Assembly (NCBI GenBank): GCA_016463765.1
Contig: JAEMQS010000014.1
Location: 1-64,000, forward strand
Direction: 5' to 3'
DNA length: 64,000 nucleotides
Source of the DNA: Solirubrobacteraceae bacterium
GTDB taxonomy: Bacteria > Actinomycetota > Thermoleophilia > Solirubrobacterales > Solirubrobacteraceae
A program made the translations under genes and the position numbers. How positions within the stretch are numbered: position 1 is the stretch's first letter; each line of letters starts with the position of its first letter. This document shows positions 2,178 to 20,588 of this stretch, in pieces. The notes under the pieces are model-generated. The model saw nothing but the letters and a program-made list of their open reading frames with translations. It was not told the DNA's origin and did no database searches.

Positions 2178-3959
2178 ATGTCTCTCATGACGTTGGGGAG
2201 ACTGGTACTGCAGGCCGCAGACCGGCACGCCGCGTACGTCGCGATGCAGGCCCCGGGAAGCGGAGGCTGGGCGGACATCTCGTTCGCCGAGCTCGGCCGG
2301 GCCGCGCGCGAGATCGCCGCCGGACTGCACGACCTCGGCCTCGGGCCGGGAGACCGGGTCGCCATCCTCGGCGCCACCCGGCCGGAGTGGACGCTCGCCG
2401 ACTGCGGCACGCTGCTCGCGGGCGCGACCGTCGTGCCGATCTACCACACCAACCCGGCGTCGGAATGCCGCTACGTGCTCGCGCACTCGGGCGCATGCGC
2501 GGTGATCTGCGAGGACGCCGACCAGCTGGCGAAGATCCGCGAGGTCCAGCCCGACTGCGTGGACCTGCGTCACATCATCACGATGGTGCCCACCGACGAC
2601 CGGGACGTCGTGTCGCTCGAGGAGCTCCGCGGCCGCGGCGTCGCGGCCGGCGCAGACGCGGACGCGATCGATCGCATCAGCGGCAGCGTGCGTGACGACG
2701 ACGTCGCGACGATCGTCTACACCTCGGGAACCACCGGCCCGCCGAAGGGCTGCATGCTCACGCACCGCAACGTCCTGGCGACCATCGACATGTACGCGCG
2801 GCAGGTGCGGATCGAGCCGGGCGACTCGGCCTTCTTCTTCCTCCCGCTCGCCCACGTGCTCGCTCGCGTGACGCAGTTCGTCGCGCTCGATTCCGGCGGC
2901 ACGCTGGCGTTCTACAGCCGCGACCCGGCGAAGCTCCTCGACGACATCGCGACGCTGCGACCGACCCACCTCCCGTCGGTGCCACGGCTCTTCGAGAAGA
3001 TCCACACCCGCGCGCTGGCGACCGCCGCCGACGAGGGCGGCGTCAAGGCCGCGATCTTCACGCGCGCGCTGAGCACGGCGCGACGGGCCCGGGCGATCGA
3101 GCGGGCCGGCAGGCGGCCGGACCCCGTGTTGCGCGCGCGCCGCGCGCTGGCCGACCGCGCCGTCCTGCACCGCGTCCGCGACCTGCTCGGTGGCCGCATC
3201 CAGCTCTGCCTGACGGGCGCGGCGCCCATCAGCGTCGAGGTCCTCGAGTTCTTCGACGCGTGCGGGATCGTGATCGTCGAGGGCTACGGCATGACCGAGA
3301 GCTGCGCCGCCGCGACGCTGAACACGCCGAGCCACGTGCGGTTCGGCACCGTCGGCCAGGCGCTCCCCGGCGCGGAGATGCGTGTCGCCGACGACGGCGA
3401 GGTGCTGCTGCGCGGTCCGCACGTCTTCCCCGGCTACTACCGCAACGAGGAGGCGACCCGCGAGACGATCGACGACGACGGCTGGCTGCACACCGGCGAC
3501 CTCGGCGCGATCGACGACGACGGGTACCTGCGCATCACCGGACGGGCGAAGGACCTCATCATCACGTCGAGCGGGAAGAACATCACGCCGTCGAACCTCG
3601 AGGCCGAGCTGCGCGAGTCGCGGTGGATCTCGCAGGCCGTGGTGTACGGCGATCAGCACCCCTACCTCGTGGCGATGCTGACCCTCGACCCGGAGGAGGC
3701 GCCATCGCTGGCGCAGCGGCTCGGCGTCGCCGACGACCCCGCGAAGATGGCCGCCGACCCGCGGGTCCGCGACGCGCTGCAGGAGGAGATCGACCGGGTC
3801 AACCGCGACGTGTCACGGATCTCGGAGATCAAGCGGTTCGGGGTGCTGGAGCGCGACCTCACGCTCGACGCCGACGAGCTGACGCCGACGCTGAAGGTCA
3901 AGCGCAACCGGGTGTACGAGCACCACCACGACTTCTTCGAGCACCTGTACGACGGTTGA
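2178..3959 (+). CDS. AMP-binding long-chain fatty-acid--CoA ligase
   Basis: Activates fatty acids through an acyl-adenylate to acyl-CoA. The 593-residue protein has the AMP-binding P-loop signature TSGTTGPPKGCMLTHRN, the A5-type motif YGMTES, the HTGDLG motif and the C-terminal hinge ITGRAKDLIITSSGKNI, all characteristic of FadD15/FAA-type ligases. The ATG at 2178 was preferred to one 72 bases upstream because the extra residues do not resemble the family; another ATG lies three codons in. It diverges from the MMPL transporter across about 130 bp, an arrangement that fits lipid metabolism, although joint function is inference. A hairpin terminator follows the stop. Confidence 0.93.
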   Translation: MSLMTLGRLVLQAADRHAAYVAMQAPGSGGWADISFAELGRAAREIAAGLHDLGLGPGDRVAILGATRPEWTLADCGTLLAGATVVPIYHTNPASECRYVLAHSGACAVICEDADQLAKIREVQPDCVDLRHIITMVPTDDRDVVSLEELRGRGVAAGADADAIDRISGSVRDDDVATIVYTSGTTGPPKGCMLTHRNVLATIDMYARQVRIEPGDSAFFFLPLAHVLARVTQFVALDSGGTLAFYSRDPAKLLDDIATLRPTHLPSVPRLFEKIHTRALATAADEGGVKAAIFTRALSTARRARAIERAGRRPDPVLRARRALADRAVLHRVRDLLGGRIQLCLTGAAPISVEVLEFFDACGIVIVEGYGMTESCAAATLNTPSHVRFGTVGQALPGAEMRVADDGEVLLRGPHVFPGYYRNEEATRETIDDDGWLHTGDLGAIDDDGYLRITGRAKDLIITSSGKNITPSNLEAELRESRWISQAVVYGDQHPYLVAMLTLDPEEAPSLAQRLGVADDPAKMAADPRVRDALQEEIDRVNRDVSRISEIKRFGVLERDLTLDADELTPTLKVKRNRVYEHHHDFFEHLYDG

Positions 3960-3961
3960 CA

Positions 3962-3996
3962 CCGACGTTCCTTGCGGTCAGCGCAAGGAACGTCGG
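3962..3996. terminator. Perfect 15-bp hairpin between convergent genes
   Basis: Arms CCGACGTTCCTTGCG and CGCAAGGAACGTCGG flank a 5-base loop. The hairpin sits between the stop of the acyl-CoA ligase and the stop of the VapC-like gene and can serve both strands. No T-tract follows, as is common in high-GC actinobacteria. Confidence 0.75.
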
Positions 3997-3999
3997 GTT

Positions 4000-4392
4000 C
4001 TACAGCTCGTCGAGCCCGATGACGAGGCCCAGCCGGTCGGCGCCGCGCCGAAGTCGCCCGTCGAGCGTCACCACACGGCGACCGGCCAGGCGGGCCAGCG
4101 CGACGTACTCTGCGTCGTAGGTCCGCGCCCAGCCCAGCTCACGCGCGACCGCCCACGCCTCGCGACCGAGCCGCGCCGGCGCCCGCCGCGCGACGGCCAG
4201 TCGTTCCAGTCGGTCGAGCATCACCTCGCCGTCCTGCACCGGAACCCGGCTCTGCCACACCTGCAGCCGCAGCGTGGCGCGGGCCTCCGACCACATGAGC
4301 GGCGGGGCGATGAGGTCGCCGCCCAGTCGCTCCAGCCCGCCTTCCTCGACGAGCGATGCCACGGCCACGCTCGCGTCGACGACGAACGTCAA
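4000..4392 (-). CDS. PIN-domain ribonuclease toxin, VapC-like
   Basis: A 130-residue protein starting MTFVVDASVAV. It has the PIN acidic residues: the first Asp at position 6, a Glu in MWSEAR near residue 35, and the later aspartates in TYDAEYVALA and VVTLDGRL. PIN toxins cleave RNA, often tRNA. The start codon overlaps the stop of the upstream antitoxin gene by 4 bases, the classic coupled toxin-antitoxin layout. Family is confident; toxicity and target are inferred. Confidence 0.88.
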   Translation of the reverse strand: MTFVVDASVAVASLVEEGGLERLGGDLIAPPLMWSEARATLRLQVWQSRVPVQDGEVMLDRLERLAVARRAPARLGREAWAVARELGWARTYDAEYVALARLAGRRVVTLDGRLRRGADRLGLVIGLDEL

Positions 4393-4637
4393 CGCCCGCG
4401 CCGGGCGTCATCGAGCGCGCCGACCCAGTCCGGCGCCGGAAGTCCCGAGGGGAGCCGTTTCCAGGCATCGGGGAGCGGGAGCGAGTCGGGACGCGTCACG
4501 AGCAGGTCAAGGTCGGCTTCCTCGATGACGTGCTGGGTGCCGACCTTCCGCGCGGGCAGGCGGCCCGAGCGGATCCAGCGGCGGATCGTCTCCGGGTCGC
4601 GGTCCACCCGCTTCGCCGCTTCGGGCACGGTCAGCAT
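4389..4637 (-). CDS. Excisionase-type helix-turn-helix antitoxin
   Basis: An 82-residue protein beginning MLTVPEAAKRVDRDPETIRRWIRSGRLPARKVG, a MerR/excisionase-like winged helix of the kind found in antitoxins paired with PIN toxins. The DNA-binding domain is N-terminal (about residues 1-50) and the C-terminal tail (about 51-82) should wrap the toxin. It is first in the operon and overlaps the toxin start by 4 bases. A TACGCT -10 box lies 9 bases before the ATG with no Shine-Dalgarno, so the transcript probably has almost no leader. Autoregulation is expected from the family but not seen directly. Confidence 0.82.
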   Translation of the reverse strand: MLTVPEAAKRVDRDPETIRRWIRSGRLPARKVGTQHVIEEADLDLLVTRPDSLPLPDAWKRLPSGLPAPDWVGALDDARRGR

Positions 4638-4684
4638 CGCTGGCGTAGCGTACTACAACACTCAGAGGATCTGGGCCTTCACGC

Positions 4685-6151
4685 TCACAGCGCCATGGCC
4701 ACGTACTTCGTCTCCAGGTACTCGTCGATGCCCTCGAACCCGCCCTCACGGCCGAACCCGGACTGCTTCACGCCGCCGAACGGCGCACCCGCGTTCGACA
4801 CCAGGCCCTGGTTCAGCCCAATCATCCCGGTCTCCAAGGCGTCGATGACCCGGAACGCCCGCTTCACGTCGCGGGTGTAGACGTACGCCACGAGCCCGTA
4901 CTCGGTCCGGTTCGCCGCGGCGATCGCCTCGTCGTCGGAGCTGAACGTCGTCACCGGCGCGACCGGGCCGAAGATCTCCTCGGTGAACACCCGTGCGTCG
5001 CCCGGCACGCCCGCCAGCACGGTGGGCTCGTAGAAGTACCCGGCGCCGTCCACCCGCGAGCCGCCGCACAGCACCTTCGCGCCGCGCGACACCGCCTCGT
5101 CGACGAGCTCGGCGACCTTGCCCCGCTGGTCGTCGTCGATCAGCGGGCCGAGCGTCACGCCCTCCTCGGTCCCGCGCCCGACCTGCATCGCGCCCATCTT
5201 CTCCGCGAGCTTCTCGGCGAACGCGTCGGCCACCGACTCGTGCACGTGGAAGCGGTTCGCGCTCGTGCACGCCTCGCCGCCGTTGCGCATCTTCGCGATC
5301 ATCGCGCCCTCGACCGCCGCGTCGAGGTCGGCGTCCTCGAAGACGAGGAACGGCGCGTTGCCGCCGAGCTCCATCGACACGCGGAGCACCTGCTCGGCCG
5401 ACTGCTCGATGAGCACCTTGCCGACCTCGGTCGACCCGGTGAACGACAGCTTGCGCGTGCGCGGGTCGCGGATCAGCGGCTCCATGACCGAGCCCGAGGA
5501 CTTCGCCGTGACCACGTTCAGCGCGCCCTTCGGCAGGCCGGCGCGGTCGACGATGTCGGCCAGCGCGAGCATCGAAAGCGGTGTCTGCTTGGCCGGCTTG
5601 ACGACCATCGTGCAGCCGGCCGCGATGGCCGGGCCGATCTTCCGGGTCCCCATCGCCATCGGGAAGTTCCACGGCGTGATGAACAGGCACGGACCGACGG
5701 GCTGGCGCTGGACCAGCACGCGCGCGGTGCCCTTCTCGTTCATGCGGAAGTCCCCGGTGATGCGCATCGCCTCGCCGCTGAACCAGTGCAGGAAATCGGC
5801 GGCGTAGAGGATCTCGGCCTTCGACTCGGCGACGGGCTTGCCCATCTCCAGCGTCATGAGCAGCGCGAGCTCGTCGGCGCGCTCCACGATCTCGTCGTAG
5901 GCACGGCGCAGGATCTCGCCGCGCTCGCGCGACGGCAGCGCGGCCATCTCCGCGCCCGCCTCACTTGCCGCGGTGAGCGCCGCCTTCGCGTCGTCGACGG
6001 TCGCGTCGGCGACCTGCGTGAGCTCGGTGCCGGTCGACGGGTCCTCGACGCTCAACGTCCCGCCGCCGGTCGCGTCGCGCCACGAGCCGCCGATGAACAG
6101 CCCCTTGGGGACGGCGTCGACGGCGGACTGCTCGGTGGTGGCGACGGCCAT
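4685..6151 (-). CDS. gabD: NAD(P)-dependent succinate-semialdehyde dehydrogenase-like aldehyde dehydrogenase
   Basis: A 488-residue aldehyde dehydrogenase. The general base Glu is in SMELGGNAPF and the nucleophilic Cys in NGGEACTSANRF; GSTEVGK is the cofactor-binding loop. Motif details (GGNAPF, EACTSANRF, C-terminal GREGGFEGIDEYLETKYV) match the succinate-semialdehyde dehydrogenase branch, which oxidises succinic semialdehyde to succinate in GABA breakdown. A GAGGAG ribosome-binding site precedes the ATG. No GABA transaminase lies next to it, so the exact aldehyde is inferred. It appears monocistronic. Confidence 0.9.
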   Translation of the reverse strand: MAVATTEQSAVDAVPKGLFIGGSWRDATGGGTLSVEDPSTGTELTQVADATVDDAKAALTAASEAGAEMAALPSRERGEILRRAYDEIVERADELALLMTLEMGKPVAESKAEILYAADFLHWFSGEAMRITGDFRMNEKGTARVLVQRQPVGPCLFITPWNFPMAMGTRKIGPAIAAGCTMVVKPAKQTPLSMLALADIVDRAGLPKGALNVVTAKSSGSVMEPLIRDPRTRKLSFTGSTEVGKVLIEQSAEQVLRVSMELGGNAPFLVFEDADLDAAVEGAMIAKMRNGGEACTSANRFHVHESVADAFAEKLAEKMGAMQVGRGTEEGVTLGPLIDDDQRGKVAELVDEAVSRGAKVLCGGSRVDGAGYFYEPTVLAGVPGDARVFTEEIFGPVAPVTTFSSDDEAIAAANRTEYGLVAYVYTRDVKRAFRVIDALETGMIGLNQGLVSNAGAPFGGVKQSGFGREGGFEGIDEYLETKYVAMAL

Positions 6152-6254: not shown

Positions 6255-7163
6255 TCAGCCGGTGCCGAACAGCGCCGGCGCGATGGTGACGACGCCGCGC
6301 TCGTCGAGGTAGCTCGCCACCACCGACCCGTCCGTCGCGATGCTGTCGACCGACGCCGGCAGCGCCCGGCGCTGCTCCATGAGCTCGACGTCGTCAGGTT
6401 CGCCCGAGCCGAAGCGCGTCGTCTGCCACGCCGTGGTGTCCTCGAGCCACGCCGCGCGGTAGCGGGTGGTCGTGACGCTGTGCGGGATGTCGTCGCGCCG
6501 GGAGGTCAGGGTCACGACGCCACCGTCGCCGGAGGCCCGGCGCAGCGCGACGCCGCCGCCGCGGCTGGAGTTGTAGGTGTACGCGACGCGCGAACCGCTG
6601 CCCGTCACCGACGTCTCCCGCGCGAGCGTAGACGTCAGCCTGCGCGTCGCCCGGCTGCGGCGCGAGTAGACCGTGACGCCCGTGCGGGTCCCGCCTCCGC
6701 GGCGGACGAACGACCACGTGCCGAGGTAGACGCTGGGTGCGGTCTCGCTGTACGTGGAGGTCGACAGTGCGCCCACGCGCGACTCGGTCCCGGCGACGAC
6801 GTCGTAGGCCCAGACGTCGCACCCCGAGATCGCGGACGTGCCCGAGCACCGTGAATACGCGACGACGAGCCGGCGCTGGCCGAGGTCCGAGCCGACGACG
6901 TCGCTGCCGATCGCGGGATCCGGCGGCGCGCCGAAGTCCGGGATGTCCGGGACCGACACGACGCGGGTCGCCGGGTTGCGGACGGTCAGGCGCCAGCGGC
7001 CGTTCGGGGCGGGCGCCGCCCACGCGTACCACCCGCCGCCGGCGGCGAGATTGCGGGCGTCTGGGGCTGCAGCGAGGAGGCTGTCGGCGGCAGCGGGCGC
7101 CGCCGACAGGGCAAGGGCGGCCAGCGGGAGCGCGGCGCCGAGGAGACGAACGAAGCGGGACAT
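6255..7163 (-). CDS. Secreted protein of unknown function, propeller-like
   Basis: A 302-residue protein with a clear signal peptide (MSRFVRL, hydrophobic core, cleavage near AAPAAADS). The mature part is a series of beta-strand-rich segments with Trp/Tyr and alternating charged loops such as GCDVWAYDV and RYRAAWLEDT, suggesting a WD40/TolB-like propeller; I see no catalytic motif. A GGAGG ribosome-binding site precedes the ATG. The gene sits between gabD and the ThDP enzyme without obvious functional links. Confidence 0.72.
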   Translation of the reverse strand: MSRFVRLLGAALPLAALALSAAPAAADSLLAAAPDARNLAAGGGWYAWAAPAPNGRWRLTVRNPATRVVSVPDIPDFGAPPDPAIGSDVVGSDLGQRRLVVAYSRCSGTSAISGCDVWAYDVVAGTESRVGALSTSTYSETAPSVYLGTWSFVRRGGGTRTGVTVYSRRSRATRRLTSTLARETSVTGSGSRVAYTYNSSRGGGVALRRASGDGGVVTLTSRRDDIPHSVTTTRYRAAWLEDTTAWQTTRFGSGEPDDVELMEQRRALPASVDSIATDGSVVASYLDERGVVTIAPALFGTG

Positions 7164-7207
7164 ACTGCTGGAACCTCCGGGGCCGCGAGGTGTTGCGGCC
7201 TTTCTCC

Positions 7208-8857
7208 TCAGGCCGAGACGGTCTCCGTCCCCAGCTCCTCGCTGAAGGCCACGTCCTGCGAGTAGTCGATGGGCACCACGATGAGCGACGGCACGTCGAG
7301 CGTGAGCGCGTGGCGGAGCTGCGGGCCGAACTCTTCCGCGGACTCGGTGCGCCACGCCGGGATGCCGAACGACTTGGCGAGCGTGACGAAGTCCGGATTG
7401 GTGAAGTCGGTGCCGAAGTGGTCGCCGAACTTCTTGTCCTGCTTCCACACGATCGAGCCGTACTGGCGGTTCTCCCAGATGACGTTGACGATCGGGGTCT
7501 TCAACCGGGTGGCGGTCTCGAGCTCCTGCATGTTCATGAGGAACCCGCCGTCGCCGTTGACCGTGACGACCTTGCGGTTCGGGTAGACGAGCTTCGCGCC
7601 GATCGCGCATGGCAGCGCGAAGCCCATGCCCGCCAGGCCGTTGGCGATGAGGACGGTGTTCGGCTCGTGGGCGGGGAACATCCGCGCGATCCACAGCTTG
7701 TGCAGGCCCACGTCGGAGATGAGCATGTCCTCGCGGCCGAGCGCCTGGCGGATCTCCCACAGCACGCGGGGCGGCTGCATCGGGAACCCGGTGTCGTTCT
7801 TCGCGGCCTCGAACCGGCCGACGATGAGGTCGTGCAGCCGGGTCGAACCGCCCGCGTGCGGCACGTCGCGGGCCTCCTCGGCCAGACGGCTGAGCACGTG
7901 GTAGATGTCCCCGATGAGCTCGACCTCGGGGATGTAGTTCGTGTCGATCTCCGCCGGCTGGGAGTCGATCATCACGATCTTCTTGTCGGCCTTCGGGTTC
8001 CAGTGCTTCGGCGCGTGCTCGACGAGGTCGTAGCCCACGCAGATCACGACGTCGGCGTCCTCGAAGCCCGCCAGCGCGTAGTCGCGCGAGTGCAGGCCGA
8101 CGGTGCCCAGCGAGTGCGCGTCGTCGGCGTCGAGCACGCCCTTGCCCATGAACGTGTGCGCCGCCGAGATGCCCGTCGCGCGGCAGAACTCCCGCAGAGC
8201 CGGCGCGGCGCCCGCGCGCACGACGCCGTTGCCGGCGAGGACCACGGGGTTGATCGCGCTGCGGATGAGGTCGACGGCCTTGAGCAGTTCGCGAGCGCCG
8301 GGCTCGGGCTCGACGGGCTTGCGGCGCTGCAGCGGCTCAAGTCCCTCGACGGTCTCCGCCATGACGTCCTCGGGCAGCTCGAGGTGCGTGGCGCCGGGCT
8401 TCTCGGACTCGGCGACCTTGAACGCCTTGCGCACGACCTCAGGCACGATGTCCGGCGAGTTGATGCGCGCGTTCCACTTCGTGATCGGCGCCATCAACGC
8501 GACGATGTCGAGGTACTGGTGCGACTCCTTGTGCATCCGCTCGAGGTCGCCCTGCCCCGTGATCGCGACGAGCGGCGCGCGGTCGAGGTACGCGTCGGCG
8601 ACCGCGGTGACGAGGTTCGTCGCGCCCGGCCCGAGGGTGCCCAGGCAGACGCCGGCGCGCCCGGTCAGCCGCCCGACCATGTCCGCCATGTAGGCCCCGC
8701 CCTGCTCATGGCGAACGGGAACGAACGTGACCGACGAGCGATCGAGCGAGTGGTTGAGGTCCAGCGTCTCCTCACCGGGGATGCCGAACACCCACTTCAC
8801 GCCCTCGGCTTCGAGGCATTCGACGAACAGATCTGAGGCGCGACGCGGGGAGCTCAC
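7208..8857 (-). CDS. Acetolactate synthase-like thiamine-diphosphate enzyme, large-subunit type
   Basis: A 549-residue ThDP enzyme. The N-terminal Pyr domain has the catalytic Glu in VPVRHEQGGAYMAD, a central Rossmann-like domain follows, and the C-terminal PP domain has the ThDP/Mg motif VNGDGGFLMNMQELETA. Architecture and the segment LGTLGPGATNL match the acetolactate synthase/AlsS group: pyruvate to acetolactate. No regulatory small subunit (ilvN) and no ilvC follow, so this may be a catabolic enzyme or a related carboligase rather than the branched-chain amino acid enzyme. The GTG start gives the expected N-terminus SSPRRASDLFVECLEAEGV; in-frame extension upstream is not family-like. Confidence 0.87.
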   Translation of the reverse strand: MSSPRRASDLFVECLEAEGVKWVFGIPGEETLDLNHSLDRSSVTFVPVRHEQGGAYMADMVGRLTGRAGVCLGTLGPGATNLVTAVADAYLDRAPLVAITGQGDLERMHKESHQYLDIVALMAPITKWNARINSPDIVPEVVRKAFKVAESEKPGATHLELPEDVMAETVEGLEPLQRRKPVEPEPGARELLKAVDLIRSAINPVVLAGNGVVRAGAAPALREFCRATGISAAHTFMGKGVLDADDAHSLGTVGLHSRDYALAGFEDADVVICVGYDLVEHAPKHWNPKADKKIVMIDSQPAEIDTNYIPEVELIGDIYHVLSRLAEEARDVPHAGGSTRLHDLIVGRFEAAKNDTGFPMQPPRVLWEIRQALGREDMLISDVGLHKLWIARMFPAHEPNTVLIANGLAGMGFALPCAIGAKLVYPNRKVVTVNGDGGFLMNMQELETATRLKTPIVNVIWENRQYGSIVWKQDKKFGDHFGTDFTNPDFVTLAKSFGIPAWRTESAEEFGPQLRHALTLDVPSLIVVPIDYSQDVAFSEELGTETVSA

Positions 8858-8953
8858 GACAGTTCCGTACCCTGGATCGAGGGGTGTGACGCCATCCGGG
8901 CGCACGCTACCACCGCGCAACTTGCGTCCCCGCGCCGTGTCCCCTGCAACGGA

Positions 8954-10372
8954 ATGCGTCTGAAGCTCGCCATCATCTCCGCGCTCACGGTTGCGCTCCT
9001 CGCGGCGCCCGTCGCCGACGCCGCGACCCGCGTGATCGTCCGCGGTGCGGGCTTCGGCCACGGGGTCGGCCTGAGCCAGTACGGCGCCTACGGGTTCGCC
9101 AAGCGCGGAACCGACTACCGCACGATCGTCAAGCACTACTACCGTGGGACCGAGCTGCGGACGCTCGACGCCGAGCAGACGGTGCGCGTGCTGCTGCAGA
9201 CGGCGGGCACTGTCCGCGTGAGCAACGTCCGCCGGATCGCGGGCGGCCGCGCGCTGTCCCCGGGGACGACCTACACGGCGCGCGGCTTCGGCTCGGAGAT
9301 CGTGCTGCGGACGAGCGCCGGCCGGTCGGTCGGGCGCTTCGCCGCGCCGCTGCGGCTCGTGGGCGCCGACGGCGGTCTGCGGCTGGGCGGCCGCGCCGGC
9401 AACGGCGTGAGCAACGGCCGCTACCGCGGGGACCTCGAACTGCGCCCGACGAGTGTCGGCGTCAACGCGATCAACGCCGTCGGGCTCGAGGACTACGTGC
9501 GCGGCGTCATCTCCGCCGAGAGCCCGGCGTCGTGGCCCGCCGCCGCGCTGCAGGCCCAGGCGGTCGTCGCCCGCACGTACGCGATCACGACGAACAAGCC
9601 CGGCGCGGGCTTCGACCACTACCCCGACGTGCGCTCGCAGGTCTACACCGGGATCCGCGCCGAGTACGCGTCCACGGACGCGGCCGTCCGCGCGACTTCC
9701 CGTCAGGTCGTCACCTACCAGGGCAAGCCGGTCGTGACGTACTTCTTCTCGACCTCCGGCGGGAAGACCGAGAACGTCGAGAACTCCTTCATCGGGTCCG
9801 ACCCCAAGCCGTGGCTGAAGAGCGTCGACGACCCGTACGACAGCGTCTCGCCGAAGCACCGCTGGGGCCCGTACCGCTGGACGCCGGCCCAGGCCAAGAA
9901 GCGGTTCGGCTCGTGGGTGAAGGGCTCGTTCCGCGGGGTCACGGTCGTGCGCCGCGGCGCGTCGCCGCGCATCGTCTACGCGGACATCGTCGGGAGCCGG
10001 GGCCGCACGCGCGTCTCCGGCCCACAGATCCGCGCGCGCCTCGGCCTCGACGACACCTGGGTGACGTTCCGCGTCATCGGCACGACCGCCAAGCCGCCGG
10101 CCTCCACCGGCGGCGGCGCGTCACCGCGCGTCCGCGGCTTCGCCCAGGCGAGCACGCCGCGCGGCGTCCTGCGCGGGTCCGTCCGGGGCGGCGCCGCGGG
10201 CGTCGGCGGGCGGTGGCTGAAGATCGAGCGCCGCTCGGCCGCGGGCACCTGGTCGACCGAGCTGGAGACCCGTGCGGAGACCGACGGCACGTACCGCGCC
10301 GCGGTCCGTCGTCCCGGCGCCTACCGGGTCCGTGTCGGCGTGGACACCGGGCCCACGGTCCGCGTCCGGTAG
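8954..10372 (+). CDS. SpoIID/LytB-domain secreted protein
   Basis: A 472-residue exported protein: signal peptide of about 23 residues (ending VADAATR), then the SpoIID/LytB domain with the signature GHGVGLSQYGAYGFAKRG near the N-terminus and LEDYVRGVISAESPASWP in the middle (about residues 178-195). SpoIID homologues are lytic transglycosylases acting on peptidoglycan lacking stem peptides; in non-sporulating actinobacteria their role is cell-wall remodelling. The C-terminal 110 residues are a Gly/Arg-rich, beta-strand-type extension. The 3' end overlaps the convergent GGDEF gene by 52 bases. Confidence 0.9.
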   Translation: MRLKLAIISALTVALLAAPVADAATRVIVRGAGFGHGVGLSQYGAYGFAKRGTDYRTIVKHYYRGTELRTLDAEQTVRVLLQTAGTVRVSNVRRIAGGRALSPGTTYTARGFGSEIVLRTSAGRSVGRFAAPLRLVGADGGLRLGGRAGNGVSNGRYRGDLELRPTSVGVNAINAVGLEDYVRGVISAESPASWPAAALQAQAVVARTYAITTNKPGAGFDHYPDVRSQVYTGIRAEYASTDAAVRATSRQVVTYQGKPVVTYFFSTSGGKTENVENSFIGSDPKPWLKSVDDPYDSVSPKHRWGPYRWTPAQAKKRFGSWVKGSFRGVTVVRRGASPRIVYADIVGSRGRTRVSGPQIRARLGLDDTWVTFRVIGTTAKPPASTGGGASPRVRGFAQASTPRGVLRGSVRGGAAGVGGRWLKIERRSAAGTWSTELETRAETDGTYRAAVRRPGAYRVRVGVDTGPTVRVR

Positions 10373-11355
10373 TCGTCGCCGCGCTTGGCGGCGAGCTGGT
10401 GCGCGTCGGCGGCGGCCATGAGGCTCGCCGCATCGTCCGCGTCGCCGGGGAAGAACGCCCAGCCGACCGCGGCGGTCAGCGGCTCGCCGCCCGCGTCGAC
10501 GGTCGCCAGCCGCTCGTGCAATGCCCCCACGAGCCGCTCGATGCCGTCCGCGTCGATGTCCGGTGCGAGCACGCTGAACTCGTCGCCGCCTTGGCGCGCG
10601 ACGGTGTCCGACTCCCGGACGGTCTCGCGCAGCGCCGCGGCGGCGCGGCGCAGGACGTCGTCCCCGGTGGGGTGGCCGAACTCGTCGTTGACGGCCTTGA
10701 AGCGGTTGAGGTCGAGCGTCACGAACGCGAGCGTCTCCCCGGACCGGTGGTGGCGGAGGATCTCGTAGTCGAGGCGCTCGTCGAGCAGCCGGCGGTTGCC
10801 CACCCCGGTCAGCGGGTCGCTGCGTACCTGGTCGCGCAGCAGGCGGGCCTGGCGCAGCTCGCCCGCGCGGAGGATGGCGACGACGGCCGTGAGCGCCCAC
10901 ACGGTCGGCAGGCCGATGAGGACCGTGCCCTGGGTGTCGGGGCTGCCCTCCCCGGTCAGGACGGGGAGCAGCATGCACGCCGAGAGAAACGCGAGGTGGA
11001 CGACGACGAAGGCCCGGCGCTCGAACGCGAAGCCCACGAGCGGACCGATGAGCAGGTAGGTCCACACGATCACGGTGGCGTCGGGTTCCGCCACCGCGAC
11101 GCCCCAGGTCGCCAGCAGGCACGCCAGCGGCGGCAGGACGTGGAACGCCCACGGGGGCATCCGCCGCCAGGGCAGGAGCAGGACGACCGCGCCGGTGAGG
11201 GAGGTCGTCGCGCCGACGACGATCAGCGGGGAGACCGGCGGCCCGTCGATCGCCAGGAGGACGAGCATCGCGAGCAGCGGAGTGAAGAGCAGGCCGAGGC
11301 CGGCCGCCACCGCGACAACCCGCAGACGATCGACGTCGAACCCTGCCCGTTCCAC
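10321..11355 (-). CDS. Membrane diguanylate cyclase, 6TM-GGDEF
   Basis: A 344-residue protein. About six hydrophobic helices span the first 170 residues, including the recurring MPPWAFHVLP segment. A GGDEF domain follows, beginning DPLTGVGNRR. The active-site GGDEF is intact, and RESD placed five residues upstream is a complete RxxD inhibitory site. The enzyme should make cyclic di-GMP from two GTP with product inhibition. GTG start. It is the first of three related cyclase genes within 6 kb; the sensory module is of the same type in all. What it senses is unknown. The 3' end overlaps the SpoIID gene tail to tail. Confidence 0.9.
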   Translation of the reverse strand: MERAGFDVDRLRVVAVAAGLGLLFTPLLAMLVLLAIDGPPVSPLIVVGATTSLTGAVVLLLPWRRMPPWAFHVLPPLACLLATWGVAVAEPDATVIVWTYLLIGPLVGFAFERRAFVVVHLAFLSACMLLPVLTGEGSPDTQGTVLIGLPTVWALTAVVAILRAGELRQARLLRDQVRSDPLTGVGNRRLLDERLDYEILRHHRSGETLAFVTLDLNRFKAVNDEFGHPTGDDVLRRAAAALRETVRESDTVARQGGDEFSVLAPDIDADGIERLVGALHERLATVDAGGEPLTAAVGWAFFPGDADDAASLMAAADAHQLAAKRGDDYRTRTVGPVSTPTRTR

Positions 11356-11403: not shown

Positions 11404-12273
11404 TCAGGTGTAACAGCTGCCCGGCCGCGCCGGCGTGCGCCAGTAGTAGTTCGCCATGGTCTCGGTAACCGTGCCGTTGTAGGCGTAGTAGCCGTTGACC
11501 ACGCCGTTCAGGCCGACTTCCCAGTGGTAGAAGCTCGCGCCGCCCTGGCTCGTGTACTCGATGACCCACGAGCCGTCGGCGTTCTGCTGCGCCCCGACGA
11601 CCGTGTACGACCCGACGGTGTTGATGTCCGAGCCGCTCACCGGCGTGCAGCGGCGGTACTCGAACGAGAAGTCGGGCATGTGCTCGTAGCGGTTCTCGAC
11701 CTGGCAGATCGGCCAGCGCCCCGCCTGACAGTCGCTGAACTCGCTGTTGAGGAAGTAGCCCTTGATCGACTCGAACGCCTCGGTGCCGGTCAGGACCCGG
11801 CCGGGCGCCTTGAAGAGCGGCGTTGCGGGAGCGGGCGTCGGATTGGCCGGCGCGGGGGTCGGGTTCGCGCCCGTCCCGCCGCCGGGAGCACCGGCGGTGA
11901 TCGTCGCGCTGATCGTCGACCGCCGGTTGGCGCGCGACCGGATGCGCAGCGACACCTTCCCGCCGGCGAGCGCCTGCACCTTCGTCGCGTCAGCCCCCTT
12001 GTAGGCCTTGCTGCGCCACGTCCCGAGCTTCTTTCCAGTCACCTTCCCGGTGCCGCGCGTGAGCTTGTACGTCTTGCCGCCGCCGACCGCGCTCACGGTC
12101 TTCGGCCGCTGCCGCGCTGACAGCGTCTTGTCGCTCGACAGGACGACCACGAGCCGCGATGCGCCGCTCTTCGTGTCGATGGTCACGGCCGCCGAGATCT
12201 TCGCCTCGGCGGTAGCGGGCAGGAGCAGTGTGAGGAGCGCGAGAAACGCGGCGGCAGGAACGCGTCGAGACAT
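11404..12273 (-). CDS. Secreted protein with Pro-rich linker, unknown function
   Basis: A 289-residue exported protein: signal peptide ending TAEAK, a beta-rich N-terminal domain (about 25-125) full of Lys/Arg/Thr, a linker made of repeated NPTPAPA units, then a C-terminal domain (about 150-289) with conserved-looking Cys, Trp and Tyr residues and a terminal GSCYT. The C-terminal Cys pairs (SDCQ, ICQ, RRCT, GSCY) could form disulfides. A GGGAGA ribosome-binding site precedes the ATG. I do not recognise either domain. It lies between two diguanylate cyclase genes. Confidence 0.75.
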   Translation of the reverse strand: MSRRVPAAAFLALLTLLLPATAEAKISAAVTIDTKSGASRLVVVLSSDKTLSARQRPKTVSAVGGGKTYKLTRGTGKVTGKKLGTWRSKAYKGADATKVQALAGGKVSLRIRSRANRRSTISATITAGAPGGGTGANPTPAPANPTPAPATPLFKAPGRVLTGTEAFESIKGYFLNSEFSDCQAGRWPICQVENRYEHMPDFSFEYRRCTPVSGSDINTVGSYTVVGAQQNADGSWVIEYTSQGGASFYHWEVGLNGVVNGYYAYNGTVTETMANYYWRTPARPGSCYT

Positions 12274-12826: not shown

Positions 12827-13855
12827 TCAGGCGGCGGTGTCGCGCCCGAACCGCGGCGCGGCGGCTGCGAGCAGCGGTGGGGTGGGGCGGACCTTGTCGG
12901 CCCGCTGACGCTCGTCGGCGATCTCGATGAGCTCGGCCGACCCGCGTGCGTCCGTCGGGTAGATCGCGTAGCCGATGGCGGCCTCCAGCGGCGTGCCGCC
13001 GGCGTCGACGGACCTCAGCGCACCCCGGATGTGCGCGACGATCTCGGCAGCGTCACGCGCGCCCGCCTCCGGCGCGAGCACGGCGAACTCGTCGCCGCCC
13101 TGCCGGGCGACGGTGTCCTGGCCGCGGACCGCGGCGCTGAGCGCGGCGGCCGCGTCCTGGAGCAGCACGTCGCCGGCACTGTGGCCGAGTTCGTCGTTGA
13201 TGCGCTTGAAGCCGTTGAGGTCCAGGACGATGAGCGCCATCTCGCGCCCGGTCCGCTCGTGCCGTGTGAACTCGTAGTCGAGGACCTCCTCGAACACCCG
13301 GCGGTTGCCGATGCCGGTCAGCGGATCGCGCCGCGCGAGCCCTTCGAGCTCCTGCGCCTGATCCTCGGCGTGCTGCCAGACGAGCATCACGAACATCCCG
13401 AGGCCCCAGGTGATCGGGACCATGAGCAGCGTCGCGAGGACCGTCACCGCGTTGGTCTCGACCAGCACCAGCGGCGCCATGAGCGCGACCGTGGCGAACG
13501 CGATGTGCGCGGCGATCGCGCGCGGCGTCTCGATCATGAAGGCGATGGCCGGGCCCGCGAACGCGAAGAGGCCGACGATCACGGCGCCGTCTGGTGACAG
13601 CGACATCGACGCCAGCGAGATCTCGGTGACCACGATGACCGGCAGCAGGTGGAACAGCCAGCCGGGCATCCGGTCGGTGGGCACCTGCGTGATGAGCAGG
13701 CCGGTGACGACGGCGAGTCCGCCGACCCAGAGGATCGGGGTGGTCCCCAGGACGAGGTGCGCGACCAGCGCAAGACCACCCGTCCCGATGAAGATCGAGG
13801 CAGTGGTGTAGCGCACGTTGCGCTGCCTGGAGATGCGGCGGGAGAGGCGCATCAT
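12827..13855 (-). CDS. Membrane diguanylate cyclase, 6TM-GGDEF
   Basis: About 342 residues with six predicted transmembrane helices in the first 180 (including the family segment RMPGWLFHLLP) and a GGDEF domain starting RRDPLTGIGNRR. The active site QGGDEF and the RGQD inhibitory site are both intact. It is the closest neighbour, in sequence and position, of the double-module cyclase at 13934-16150. The start is uncertain: ATG at 13855 or 13852, or GTG at 13861 or 13885, none with a clear ribosome-binding site. Product is cyclic di-GMP; the input signal is unknown. Confidence 0.88.
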   Translation of the reverse strand: MMRLSRRISRQRNVRYTTASIFIGTGGLALVAHLVLGTTPILWVGGLAVVTGLLITQVPTDRMPGWLFHLLPVIVVTEISLASMSLSPDGAVIVGLFAFAGPAIAFMIETPRAIAAHIAFATVALMAPLVLVETNAVTVLATLLMVPITWGLGMFVMLVWQHAEDQAQELEGLARRDPLTGIGNRRVFEEVLDYEFTRHERTGREMALIVLDLNGFKRINDELGHSAGDVLLQDAAAALSAAVRGQDTVARQGGDEFAVLAPEAGARDAAEIVAHIRGALRSVDAGGTPLEAAIGYAIYPTDARGSAELIEIADERQRADKVRPTPPLLAAAAPRFGRDTAA

Positions 13856-13933
13856 GATCACTATCGGCCGACGGCGACCGTCCACTGAGGACGAGCTGCC
13901 GAAACTGGTCGAGTGTCCAGCGGATGTCTCGGA

Positions 13934-16150
13934 TCACACGGGGAAATCGGCCCGTGCGCCGCGCCACATGGCGCTGAGCTGCGTGCCGTCCCCGGAATCC
14001 CGGCGCCGCGGGCCCTTGTCCGCGCGCTGCCGGGCATCGGCCACCTCGACGAGGTGCTCGCGCTCGGTCGCGTCGTCCGGGAACACCGCGGAGCCGATCG
14101 CTCCCGCGAGGTTGGTCCCGCCGCCCGCGTCGACATCGCCGAGTGCCTCGCGGACGTTGCGCACGATCCGCGCCGCCTCGGGTGCGCCGGCCTCCGGCGC
14201 GAGGATGCAGAACTCGTCGCCGCCCTGGCGGGTGACGGTGTCCTGGCGGCGCACGGCGGCCCGCAGCGCCGTCGCGGCAGCGCGGAGGACCTCGTCGCCG
14301 GCGAGGTGGCCGAGCGTGTCGTTGACCCGCTTGAAGTCGTTGAGGTCGAGCACGATGAGGGCGAACTGCCGGCCCGTGCGGGCGTGGCGCGTCAGCTCGT
14401 AGTCCAGGCGCTCGCCGAGCAGCCGCCGGTTTCCTACCCCGGTCAGCGGGTCGCGGCGCATGAGCCGCCCGAGCTCCTCGGCCTGCTCCTCGACGATCCG
14501 CCAGGGCAGGGCGATGAACAGGACCATCGCCCAGAGGCCCACGGTGGTCGCGACGACCGCGACGAACGTCACGTCGTCGTACGGGGCGTAGAGCAGCGGC
14601 AGGGCGATCAGGAACGTCGTGAACGCCGTCTGCACCGCCATGCCGCGCCGCGTCTCCATCATGAAGCCGATCGCCGCGCCCACGAACATGAAGAACGGCA
14701 TCACGAGATACCCCGATGGGCCGACGGCCCAGACCGCGGCGGTGGCGACCAGCGCCGCGCACAGCGGCCCGAGGTGGAACCACGCCGCCGGCAGCCGGTC
14801 GGTCGGCGCGAACCGCATGACCAGGCCGACCGCGACGGCGACCGGGGTCATCAGCAGCAGACGCGGCTCGTCGACGAGCAACGCTCCCGCGGCGGCCGCG
14901 AGCGCGCCGAACAGGTAGACGAACATCACGGCCACGCGGACGCTCGGCTGCCGGCTGACCCGGCGCGAGAGCGGCACGTGATCCTCTTCGCCCGAGGGCA
15001 GCGGGACACTCGCCGGCAGTTCGATCGGCACGGGGCGCTCGAAGGCCTCGGGCAGGATGATCTCGCCGAGCCCGACCGACGACTGCAGCTTGTCGTCGCG
15101 CTGGCGCGCATCGGCCTGGTGCAGCAGCGTCTGCGGGTCCCGTCCGTCCTGCGGGAACGTCGCAACGCCGACGGCGGTCGTCAGCGGCCGGCCCGCGGCA
15201 TCAACGGTGGCGAGCACGCCGCGGATCGTCGCAACCAGGCGTGCCGCATCCTCGGCGCCCGTCTCCGGCGCGATGATGCAGAACTCGTCGCCGCCCGGGC
15301 GGGTGACGGTGTCCTGGCCGCGCAGCGCGCTGGTAAGCAGCGCCCCGACCTCGCGGAGGAGGTCGTCACCGGCGGTGTGGCCGAGCCGGTCGTTGACCTG
15401 CTTGAACCCGTTGAGATCGAGGACGAGCAGCGTGAGCGGCAGGCCGGTGCGGCTGTGGCGGGCCATCTCGTAGTCGAGCCGCTCGCCGAGCATCCGGCGG
15501 TTGCCCACGCCCGTGAGCGGATCGCGGCGCACGAGCTGCTCGAGCATCGCGCCCTGGGCCTCGGCCGTTCCCCAGACGAGGTGGATGAACGCCGCGAGCC
15601 CGGCCGCGCAGACGAAGCTCGCCAGGAGGGCGGCGTCGGTCGCCGCGTTCGTGTCCGCGAAGAGGGCGAGGCCGAGCACGACCGCCGCGGCCAGCGTCCA
15701 CTGGAAGACCCTGCCGGCACGCCCCTCGATGACGAAGGCGATCGTCGGCCCGACGAACACGAAGAGGGCCGCGACGGTGCCGCCATGCGGTTCGAGTGTC
15801 GCCACGCCGACGGCCCATGGCGCCAGGATCAGGATCGGAAGCCCGTGATACCAGGCCGGGTGCATCGTCCGCAGCGGCGTGCCGACCACGAGCGCGGCCG
15901 AGAGCAGCGCGAGCACCCCGCTGAGGCGGATGGCGCCGTTGTCGAACATCTCGGCTGCCGGGAACGTCAGGATGCCGATGACCGTGAGCAGGCCGACGGT
16001 GATGATCTTGCCGCGGTTCTGGCGGCTGATCTGGCGGGCGAGGGTCTCCGGCTCGGTCGGGCGATACCCGATCAGGCGCAGGGTGCGCAGGACACGCAGA
16101 AGCGGCTGCGGGTAACGCGACGAACGCGTCGCAGGTGTTGCACGAACCAT
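13934..16150 (-). CDS. Double-module membrane diguanylate cyclase, (6TM-GGDEF)x2
   Basis: A 738-residue protein with two complete copies of the 6TM-GGDEF unit in one chain. The first copy has helices at about 50-200 and GGDEF at 286-290; the second has helices at about 400-550 and GGDEF at 643-647. Each catalytic motif is preceded by an RxxD inhibitory site (RGQD, RRQD). The copies share DPLTGVGNRR, LGERLDYE and ADARQR segments, so they arose by duplication and in-frame fusion. One chain could form the catalytic GGDEF pair within itself. ATG 16150 was chosen; GTG 16171, with a TATTTA box just upstream, is possible. Confidence 0.9.
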   Translation of the reverse strand: MVRATPATRSSRYPQPLLRVLRTLRLIGYRPTEPETLARQISRQNRGKIITVGLLTVIGILTFPAAEMFDNGAIRLSGVLALLSAALVVGTPLRTMHPAWYHGLPILILAPWAVGVATLEPHGGTVAALFVFVGPTIAFVIEGRAGRVFQWTLAAAVVLGLALFADTNAATDAALLASFVCAAGLAAFIHLVWGTAEAQGAMLEQLVRRDPLTGVGNRRMLGERLDYEMARHSRTGLPLTLLVLDLNGFKQVNDRLGHTAGDDLLREVGALLTSALRGQDTVTRPGGDEFCIIAPETGAEDAARLVATIRGVLATVDAAGRPLTTAVGVATFPQDGRDPQTLLHQADARQRDDKLQSSVGLGEIILPEAFERPVPIELPASVPLPSGEEDHVPLSRRVSRQPSVRVAVMFVYLFGALAAAAGALLVDEPRLLLMTPVAVAVGLVMRFAPTDRLPAAWFHLGPLCAALVATAAVWAVGPSGYLVMPFFMFVGAAIGFMMETRRGMAVQTAFTTFLIALPLLYAPYDDVTFVAVVATTVGLWAMVLFIALPWRIVEEQAEELGRLMRRDPLTGVGNRRLLGERLDYELTRHARTGRQFALIVLDLNDFKRVNDTLGHLAGDEVLRAAATALRAAVRRQDTVTRQGGDEFCILAPEAGAPEAARIVRNVREALGDVDAGGGTNLAGAIGSAVFPDDATEREHLVEVADARQRADKGPRRRDSGDGTQLSAMWRGARADFPV

Positions 16151-16258
16151 GTCCACGGCTGAAACCAGCACTTCGCGCCTAAATATGGCGTATCAGTGCC
16201 CCGGTGGCGAGGAATCGGGCCTACGTCGTTCGTCCAGGCTCGGTGACGACGGGTCATG

Positions 16259-18869: not shown

Positions 18870-19459
18870 TCGACACAAGACGCCGAGCAGACACGGAGTG
18901 GGCGTCGCCGGAACAGCCCACGACTCCAGCCCCGTTCGAAGAAGACGTGTCACTCGTCGACGAGTTTGCCCGCGTCCCGAAGCCTCGGCCCGGCGTCGGC
19001 GTCTACCTCGGGCTCGCGATGGTCGCGGCGATCGCGGTCTGGATCACCGGAACCGCCGACCTCCAGGAGGCCGCACTGGCCGCACTGCTCATCGCCGTGC
19101 CGACGACCCTCGGGCGACTCTATGGCGATCACCAGCGGATGGCGCGGGCGCTGCCCGCCTCGGCGAACGACGTCCTGGCTGCGGACGACGACGAGGACGA
19201 GCGGAGCGGCGTCGTGGGCGCAGCGCTCCTCGGCGTGGTGATCGCGGGGCTTCTCGCTGCGACGGGCGCCCTGTTCGGCGAAGGCGTCTGGTGGGGGGTC
19301 GGCGCCACTGTCGGCATCGTCATCGGCTCGGACCTCCGCGCGCTCGCCCTCCGCGCGCTCGTGCCCAGGCTGCACCCGGATGCCATCCTCGGCCATCGCC
19401 TCGACGGCGACGGTGACGACGTGTACCGGCTCTTCGCCCTCGAGCCCCCCACAGGCTGA
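18866..19459 (+). CDS. Four-helix membrane protein, unknown function (operon gene 3 of 3)
   Basis: A 197-residue protein with an acidic, Pro-containing N-terminal tail of about 40 residues, two hydrophobic hairpins (about 44-80 and 115-152) separated by an acidic loop (ADDDEDERSG), and a C-terminal GDGDDVYRLFAL segment that resembles the ends of genes 1 and 2. GTG start overlapping the previous stop. Product and function are unknown; co-translation of three similar proteins points to a hetero-oligomeric membrane complex, which is inference. Confidence 0.68.
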   Translation: MIDTRRRADTEWASPEQPTTPAPFEEDVSLVDEFARVPKPRPGVGVYLGLAMVAAIAVWITGTADLQEAALAALLIAVPTTLGRLYGDHQRMARALPASANDVLAADDDEDERSGVVGAALLGVVIAGLLAATGALFGEGVWWGVGATVGIVIGSDLRALALRALVPRLHPDAILGHRLDGDGDDVYRLFALEPPTG

Positions 19460-19460
19460 A

Positions 19461-19669
19461 CGTCGAAATGTGGCGGTTGATCCGATCGAGCGTCGAAATG
19501 TGGTGGCTGGCGCGACCATATTTCGACGTTCGCTCCTGACCGCCCGCCCAGCCCGCATTCCCTCCGGGCACCGGCGCCCTCGGACCGCCCCACCGGCCCA
19601 ACGTCGAAATGTGGTGCCCCCAGCCACCACATTCCGACGCTCACCTCGCAGAACCACCACATCCCGACG
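19461..19669. repeat. Six-copy 16-bp motif CGTCGAAATGTGGTGG, three direct and three inverted
   Basis: Forward copies lie at 19461-19476, 19491-19506 and 19602-19616; inverted copies at 19516-19528, 19624-19639 and 19654-19669, with one to three substitutions each. The second forward and first inverted copies, and the third forward and second inverted copies, face each other 7-9 bases apart and can form hairpins. The cluster fills the 262-bp gap between the membrane-protein operon and the exonuclease gene. It may be a REP-like terminator cluster or a protein-binding array. Confidence 0.85.
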
Positions 19670-19721
19670 TTCGGCGCCCCGCCGCGGAGCGTCGCCCCGG
19701 CCCCGGATACCCTCCGAACCC

Positions 19722-20588
19722 ATGCCCGGCCCGCTCCTCGCCGTCGACGCGCCGTCGCTGCTCTACCGCGCGTTCTTCGCCCTCCCGTCCTCCATCAAGG
19801 GCGCCGACGGCCATCCCGTCAACGCGCTGCTCGGCACCGCGAACCTCATCCTCTTCGCCGTCGAGCGCCACGAGCCCCGCGCCGTCGCGCTGTGCTTCGG
19901 CGCCGAGGCCGCGCACTACCGCACCGACGCGTTCCCCGCCTACCACGCCGACCGCCCGCCCATGCCCGACGAGCTGGCCCGCCAGTGGGAGGACGCCCCC
20001 GCGTTCTTCACCGCCTTCGGGTGGACCATCCACCACGCCGGCGACCTCGAGGCCGACGACCTGCTCGGCTCGTTTGCGCGCATCGAGGAAGAGGCCGGCG
20101 GCACCGCGCTGCTGTTCACCGGTGACCGCGACATGTTCCAGTGCGCCACCGACCACGTCAGCGTCCTGTACCCGCGCGGGGGCAAGGACGGGCCGGAGGT
20201 CATCGACCCCGGCGCCGTCCGCGAGCGCTACGGCATCGACCCCGAGCAGGTCCCCGACTTCATCGCGCTGCGCGGCGACCCGTCCGACGGCCTCCCCGGC
20301 GCCAAGGGCATCGGGGAGAAGACCGCGCGCGACCTGCTGCGCGAGCACGGCTCCCTCGAGGGCCTGCTCGATGAGGCGCACAAGCCCGTCCCCAAGCTCA
20401 AGCCGCGCGTCGTCGGCACGCTGACCGCGCAGGCCGACGAGCTGCGTGCGTTCAAGGACATCGCGTCGCTGCGCCAGATCGACGTCGAACGTCCGCACGA
20501 TGCGCCTCTTGATGCCGAAGCAGCCGCCGCTGCTGCCCGTGCACGCGGCATCATGCGGCTGGCCGAGCGCTTGCAGGCGCTCGCCTGA
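19722..20588 (+). CDS. 5'-3' exonuclease, FEN/PolA N-terminal family
   Basis: A 288-residue stand-alone version of the DNA polymerase I 5'-nuclease domain. It has the N-terminal metal ligand in LLAVDAPSLLYRAFFA, the acidic cluster LEADDLLGSFA and FTGDRDMFQ, the helix-hairpin-helix segment LPGAKGIGEKTARDLL, and GDPSDG. Such proteins remove 5' flaps and RNA primers on DNA. A TACCCT -10 box lies 8 bases before the ATG, with no Shine-Dalgarno. Confidence 0.9.
   Translation: MPGPLLAVDAPSLLYRAFFALPSSIKGADGHPVNALLGTANLILFAVERHEPRAVALCFGAEAAHYRTDAFPAYHADRPPMPDELARQWEDAPAFFTAFGWTIHHAGDLEADDLLGSFARIEEEAGGTALLFTGDRDMFQCATDHVSVLYPRGGKDGPEVIDPGAVRERYGIDPEQVPDFIALRGDPSDGLPGAKGIGEKTARDLLREHGSLEGLLDEAHKPVPKLKPRVVGTLTAQADELRAFKDIASLRQIDVERPHDAPLDAEAAAAAARARGIMRLAERLQALA

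What the first reader, a model, noticed from the sequence alone, without database searches (positions are those of the whole stretch)
13934..16150. Double 6TM-GGDEF diguanylate cyclase fusion
One chain carries two membrane sensor modules and two GGDEF domains, both with intact active site and RxxD inhibitory site. Diguanylate cyclases normally need two chains to form the active site; here a single chain could supply both halves. The copies are clearly similar, so this is a fused tandem duplication.
Basis: partly seen in the sequence, partly recalled or inferred. Interest (0 to 1): 0.6.

Follow-up and report, generated by a model that had tools for sequence, protein, structure and literature searches.

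The report
Double-barrelled single-chain c-di-GMP synthase family
One bacterial membrane protein carries two complete copies of the sensor-plus-enzyme unit that normally has to pair up as two separate proteins to make the signal c-di-GMP; it belongs to a family that arose by fusion several times in one group of soil and water bacteria, and its layout matches that of animal adenylyl cyclases.

Summary
One 745-codon ORF (13934-16171) encodes 6TM-GGDEF-6TM-GGDEF, with both active sites and both RxxD inhibitory sites intact. It is fused in three genomes of the genus, including the closed Svornostia abyssi chromosome, so it is not a frameshift or assembly artefact. It is also not unique. I collected 70 distinct doubles from Thermoleophilia, mostly Solirubrobacterales, and none in the sampled genomes outside that class. 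In the tree, N halves group with N halves and C halves with C halves inside each double family. That means at least four, and probably six or seven, separate fusions. The window's two halves are not each other's closest relatives, so a recent self-duplication is unlikely. Both active sites are kept together in 62 of 70 doubles and lost together in 5. The inhibitory site is usually kept in one half only, normally the C half; the window protein belongs to the minority that keeps both. AlphaFold gives a confident single-chain arrangement (pTM 0.82; 0.80 for a double of another family), and the top structural hits are mammalian adenylyl cyclases along their whole length. Best reading: a covalent, pseudo-heterodimeric diguanylate cyclase. 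Catalysis within one chain is inferred, not shown.

The parts
13934..16171 (-). Gene for the double 6TM-GGDEF protein (P0002, 745 aa; GTG at 16171, alternative ATG at 16150)
   Evidence: ORF, coding composition, orthologues in three genomes
15548..16018 (-). First 6TM module (residues 52-208); TM6 helix continues without a break (176-215) into GGDEF1
   Evidence: hydropathy, AlphaFold secondary structure
15089..15526 (-). GGDEF domain 1 (residues 216-361)
   Evidence: Pfam PF00990
15311..15322 (-). Inhibitory site 1, RGQD (residues 284-287)
   Evidence: sequence
15281..15295 (-). Active-site motif 1, GGDEF (residues 293-297)
   Evidence: sequence
14966..15082 (-). Linker between halves (residues 364-402); low-confidence, flexible in the model at 382-397
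14477..14947 (-). Second 6TM module (residues 409-565); TM6 helix 533-572 runs into GGDEF2
14021..14455 (-). GGDEF domain 2 (residues 573-717)
   Evidence: Pfam PF00990
14240..14251 (-). Inhibitory site 2, RRQD (residues 641-644)
   Evidence: sequence
14210..14224 (-). Active-site motif 2, GGDEF (residues 650-654)
   Evidence: sequence
12827..13885 (-). Downstream single-copy 6TM-GGDEF paralogue (P0003), 50% identical to the C half of the double; next to the double in all three genomes of the genus
10321..11355 (-). Further single-copy 6TM-GGDEF paralogue (P0004)

Best explanation
P0002 is a membrane diguanylate cyclase built as a covalent dimer. Two different but homologous 6TM sensor-GGDEF modules sit in one chain. 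Each TM6 helix runs directly into its GGDEF domain. The two helices are thought to pack side by side, so that the two GGDEF domains face each other and each contributes one GTP-loaded half-site to make c-di-GMP (inferred). The two 6TM modules can then read two signals, or two faces of one signal, and set the relative orientation of the GGDEF domains (inferred). Product binding at the RxxD sites locks the pair in an inactive orientation (established for PleD and tDGC, inferred here). Such fusions arose several times from single-copy 6TM-GGDEF genes lying in tandem.
For: Shown: the architecture, intact A- and I-sites and purifying selection on both halves. Shown: 70 distinct doubles, with both A-sites intact in 62, both degenerate in 5 and only one intact in 3 (Fisher p = 1e-5, not corrected for descent). 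This is what is expected if both half-sites serve one reaction. Shown: in four double families Arg of RxxD is kept almost only in the C half (N 0/18, 0/11, 2/19, 0/4 against C 18/18, 9/11, 17/19, 3/4), and in another family only in the N half (3/11 against 0/11). One inhibitory site per chain is enough if N pairs with C. AlphaFold puts the two halves in a confident relative position (pTM 0.82 for P0002, 0.80 for a 23%-identical double of another family); two freely placed halves would give about 0.5. Foldseek ranks full-length human adenylyl cyclases first for both models. A solved single-module 6TM-GGDEF enzyme, ImcA, is a homodimer (PMC10904736). An unfused counterpart exists in the same genome: two single genes on C231 with an ATGA overlap.
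Against: No activity or oligomeric state is known. Retention of both A-sites also fits a dimer of doubles with N:N' and C:C' pairs. The model coordinates could not be inspected for A-site geometry, and global TM-scores to adenylyl cyclases are low (0.3-0.4), so the match is one of domain order and local fold, not of overall pose. The two predictions used overlapping alignments. The A-site and I-site counts include related sequences; on the tree there are only about nine A-site changes, and three of the losses are one-sided.
Confidence: 0.6

Rival explanations
1. The double protein works as a dimer (or larger assembly) of chains. The N-terminal GGDEF domains pair between chains and so do the C-terminal ones, giving two catalytic units with different regulation; the fusion only keeps two cyclases together.
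For: Both A-sites are conserved in most doubles, which this also predicts. Single-module 6TM-GGDEF proteins are homodimers (ImcA, PMC10904736). In most doubles only one half keeps RxxD, which could mean one inhibited and one uninhibited unit.
Against: The confident intrachain arrangement in two predictions makes a second chain unnecessary. A-sites tend to be lost together, whereas two independent units could decay separately.
Confidence: 0.25
2. Only one half is the enzyme in practice; the other is a sensor or GTP/c-di-GMP-binding regulator, or pairs with the neighbouring single-copy paralogues P0003 and P0004.
For: In many GGDEF-EAL composites one domain is inactive but regulatory (PMC9587094). 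P0003 lies directly downstream and is the closest relative of the C half.
Against: Both A-sites of P0002 are intact and under purifying selection. One-sided A-site loss is seen in only 3 of 70 doubles.
Confidence: 0.12
3. Assembly or frameshift artefact joining two neighbouring genes.
For: Tandem paralogues lie next to each other, which can mislead assembly.
Against: The fusion is conserved at 78% and 65% identity in two other genomes, one of them a closed chromosome, with the linker conserved and codon periodicity continuous.
Confidence: 0.01

Closest known systems
ImcA (Pseudomonas aeruginosa 6TM-GGDEF diguanylate cyclase, PDB 8WCN)
   Same: Six TM helices feeding into a GGDEF domain; Foldseek aligns about 350-360 columns with each of the two models
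   Different: ImcA has one module and forms a homodimer of two chains (PMC10904736); here two different modules are fused
Mammalian membrane adenylyl cyclases (AC5, AC8, AC9)
   Same: Order 6TM-catalytic-6TM-catalytic in one chain, origin by duplication and fusion of a 6TM-cyclase progenitor (PMC9552081), top Foldseek hits over the whole chain
   Different: Catalytic domain is class III adenylyl cyclase, not GGDEF (the two folds are related). In the mammalian enzymes one of the two sites has become regulatory (own knowledge); here both half-sites are kept. Global TM-scores are low. The resemblance is convergence in layout, not membership
Classical GGDEF diguanylate cyclases (PleD, WspR, tDGC)
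   Same: Same catalytic domain, A-site and RxxD I-site
   Different: Those enzymes need two chains; here one chain holds both GGDEF domains
Rv1625c (Mycobacterium tuberculosis 6TM adenylyl cyclase)
   Same: Bacterial 6TM-cyclase single module regarded as progenitor of a fused eukaryotic enzyme
   Different: Homodimeric and unfused; here singles and fused doubles coexist in one genome

Membership tests
GGDEF diguanylate cyclase (PF00990) | Significant match to the GGDEF domain | tested here: met
   Two domains, 243 bits in total against a cut-off of 23.8
GGDEF diguanylate cyclase (PF00990) | A-site: GG(D/E)EF, first metal Asp, Asn and Asp of the guanine site, conserved C-terminal Lys | tested here: met
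   All present in both halves
GGDEF diguanylate cyclase (PF00990) | RxxD inhibitory site and secondary Arg (PleD R313) | tested here: met
   Present in both halves
GGDEF diguanylate cyclase (PF00990) | Makes c-di-GMP from GTP | not testable with these tools
   Needs an assay
Single-chain (pseudo-heterodimeric) cyclase | Two catalytic modules in one chain, conserved as a fusion | tested here: met
   Three genomes of the genus; 70 doubles overall
Single-chain (pseudo-heterodimeric) cyclase | N and C modules are stably distinct (N groups with N, C with C) | tested here: met
   Trees; for the window's own family N with N is supported (87/94) and C with C is unresolved (46/66)
Single-chain (pseudo-heterodimeric) cyclase | Catalytic domains pair within the chain | tested here: inconclusive
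   pTM 0.82 and 0.80 indicate a defined intrachain arrangement, but coordinates could not be inspected
Class III adenylyl cyclase | Class III cyclase homology domain | tested here: not met
   No adenylyl cyclase match in Pfam or NCBIfam; only GGDEF
Named membrane sensor families (MASE, 5TM, 7TM and others) | Pfam match to a named membrane sensor domain | tested here: not met
   No Pfam model matches the 6TM modules

The most novel reading that the evidence does not exclude
Thermoleophilia evolved, several times over, single-chain pseudo-heterodimeric diguanylate cyclases with the layout of mammalian adenylyl cyclases. Each chain makes c-di-GMP by itself, reads two different membrane signals, and has usually kept just one of the two product-inhibition sites.
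Probability: 0.5. Interest if true: 0.75.

Novelty: new variant of a known kind. Interest (0 to 1): 0.6.

Why it matters
Diguanylate cyclases are textbook obligate homodimers, so it is hard to ask what each subunit and each inhibitory site does. A natural single-chain version makes each half separately mutable. The same bacteria also hold unfused singles, an ATGA-overlapping pair and several independent fusions, so the steps from homodimer to pseudo-heterodimer, which for animal adenylyl cyclases must be inferred from one ancient event, can be compared directly. The recurrent one-sided loss of the inhibitory site is a testable prediction about product inhibition.

Tried and rejected
Artefact: rejected by conserved fusions. 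Recent internal duplication: N+C exclusive clade rejected at AU p = 0.030. Four-fold fusions hinted at by about 1500-aa open frames in relatives: on extraction these held only two GGDEF domains. Complementary split of the inhibitory site (primary RxxD in one half, secondary Arg313 in the other): no such pattern, Arg313 varies freely. A class III adenylyl cyclase relationship by sequence: none. Doubles outside Thermoleophilia: none intact in phylum samples of Actinomycetota, Proteobacteria and Chloroflexota (the thresholds could miss doubles with very different sensors; the two long-span hits, in an Actinoplanes genome and in one proteobacterial genome, had in-frame stops, most likely neighbouring unfused genes). 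Literature: searches of the open-access library for tandem, dual or double GGDEF proteins returned GGDEF-EAL proteins or unrelated text in every passage I read; most hits were judged from title and abstract only. Subscription papers and preprints were not searchable.

Full report
What is there. The finding's coordinates hold a gene on the minus strand, 13934..16171, 745 codons. The protein has six hydrophobic segments, a GGDEF domain (216-361), a linker, six more hydrophobic segments and a second GGDEF domain (573-717). Both GGDEF motifs, both metal aspartates, both guanine-site residues, both RxxD motifs and both secondary arginines are present. No Pfam model covers the 6TM modules.

It is not an artefact. 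The same fused ORF exists at 78% identity in Svornostia abyssi (closed chromosome; Baekduiaceae, Solirubrobacterales) and at 65% in a third genome of the genus, each with the P0003 orthologue next to it. The linker is conserved and codon periodicity runs through it. From the dN and dS values, dN/dS is about 0.15 and 0.12 in the two GGDEF domains, 0.24 in the linker and 0.46 in the first 6TM module. Synonymous sites are quite diverged, so these are rough.

It is one of a family. The window's genome has 74 GGDEF and 26 EAL domains in 4.57 Mb and three further double 6TM-GGDEF ORFs (L021, L023, L024). Searches of relatives, order and class, followed by extraction and re-scanning, gave 70 distinct doubles. 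All are in Thermoleophilia. Samples of the phylum and of two other phyla gave none intact; these thresholds are strict, so absence elsewhere is provisional.

How the doubles arose. In a tree of 198 modules, N halves cluster with N halves and C halves with C halves within each double family, and the N and C clades of a family are neighbours. If there had been one ancestral fusion, all N halves would form one clade. The GGEEF-type family, the two families of genus code g26 and the Svornostia/g21 group lie in separate clades, with single-copy genes among or beside them, so at least four separate fusions are needed; L227 and L024 look like two more. The C231 pair in the same genome shows the unfused state: two single genes whose stop and start overlap as ATGA. 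For the window protein, the N half groups with the N half of the C164 double (87/94), the C halves are unresolved, and an exclusive N+C clade is mildly rejected (p = 0.030). So the halves were already distinct modules before this gene and C164 diverged; this is fusion of tandem paralogues, not a recent self-copy.

What selection has kept. Both A-sites are intact in 62 doubles, both degenerate in 5, one-sided in 3 (Fisher p = 1e-5). The RxxD arginine is treated differently: in four families almost only the C half keeps it, in one only the N half, and in the window's family both. Most single-copy genes in the set keep RxxD (130 of 147 with an intact A-site; these were fetched by similarity to P0002, so the sample is biased). 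These are counts of related sequences, not independent events; parsimony gives 21 changes for the arginine and 9 for the A-site on the tree. The pattern - both catalytic half-sites kept, one inhibitory site dropped - is what a chain that pairs with itself would show.

Structure. AlphaFold models of P0002 (53-row alignment) and of a distant double, L039 (23% identity), have pLDDT 86 and 88 and pTM 0.82 and 0.80. With two halves of equal size, such pTM values mean that the relative placement of the halves is predicted with confidence. Each TM6 helix continues about 20 residues into the cytoplasm and ends at a GGDEF domain. Foldseek against the PDB ranks full-length human adenylyl cyclases first for both models, over 820-970 columns, with low global TM-scores: same order of parts and related local folds, not the same overall pose. 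ImcA, a solved 6TM-GGDEF enzyme, is a homodimer.

Mechanism and limits. DGCs need two GTP-loaded GGDEF domains (PMC7825114 abstract), and product binding at RxxD locks GGDEF domains in a non-productive pose (PMC4215984). The best reading is that P0002 supplies both GGDEF domains itself. Shown: architecture, conservation, recurrent fusion, joint A-site retention, one-sided inhibitory-site loss, confident intrachain arrangement. Inferred: catalysis within one chain, signal integration by two 6TM modules, inhibition mode. A dimer of doubles with N:N' and C:C' pairs remains possible.

Known or new. Layout and inferred origin parallel the eukaryotic membrane adenylyl cyclases (PMC9552081). In the open-access literature I found no description of double 6TM-GGDEF enzymes. 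I rate it a new variant of a known kind.

Noticed in passing
window 19450-19675: Cluster of six short, partly palindromic units (CGTCGAAATGTGGTGG and its complement). The 16-mer has 29 copies with at most one mismatch in the genome against none for the reversed control, often as close inverted pairs: a dispersed REP-like element.
   Followed up: partly
window 19380-20588: The mechanical ORF of the 5'-3' exonuclease runs through the REP-like cluster; the real start is probably near 19720, after it.
   Followed up: no
L022 (G000:C231), about 1885-1895: Two single-copy 6TM-GGDEF genes overlap by four bases (ATGA), a translationally coupled, unfused counterpart of the double gene.
   Followed up: yes
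L026 (G000:C109) 1235-2500: A 422-aa protein without a membrane-sensor array holds two GGDEF-like domains, both degenerate at the active site.
   Followed up: no
L140 (G022:C54): Four double 6TM-GGDEF genes in a row within about 10 kb; two of them (3128-5332 and 6486-8873) have lost both active sites.
   Followed up: partly
L061: The contig titled 'Bifidobacterium breve' (CAMCUD010000006.1) carries the Svornostia-type locus at 65% identity; the record's name looks wrong.
   Followed up: no
window 11404-12273: 289-aa secreted-looking protein without any Pfam match, between P0004 and a MaoC-like gene.
   Followed up: no
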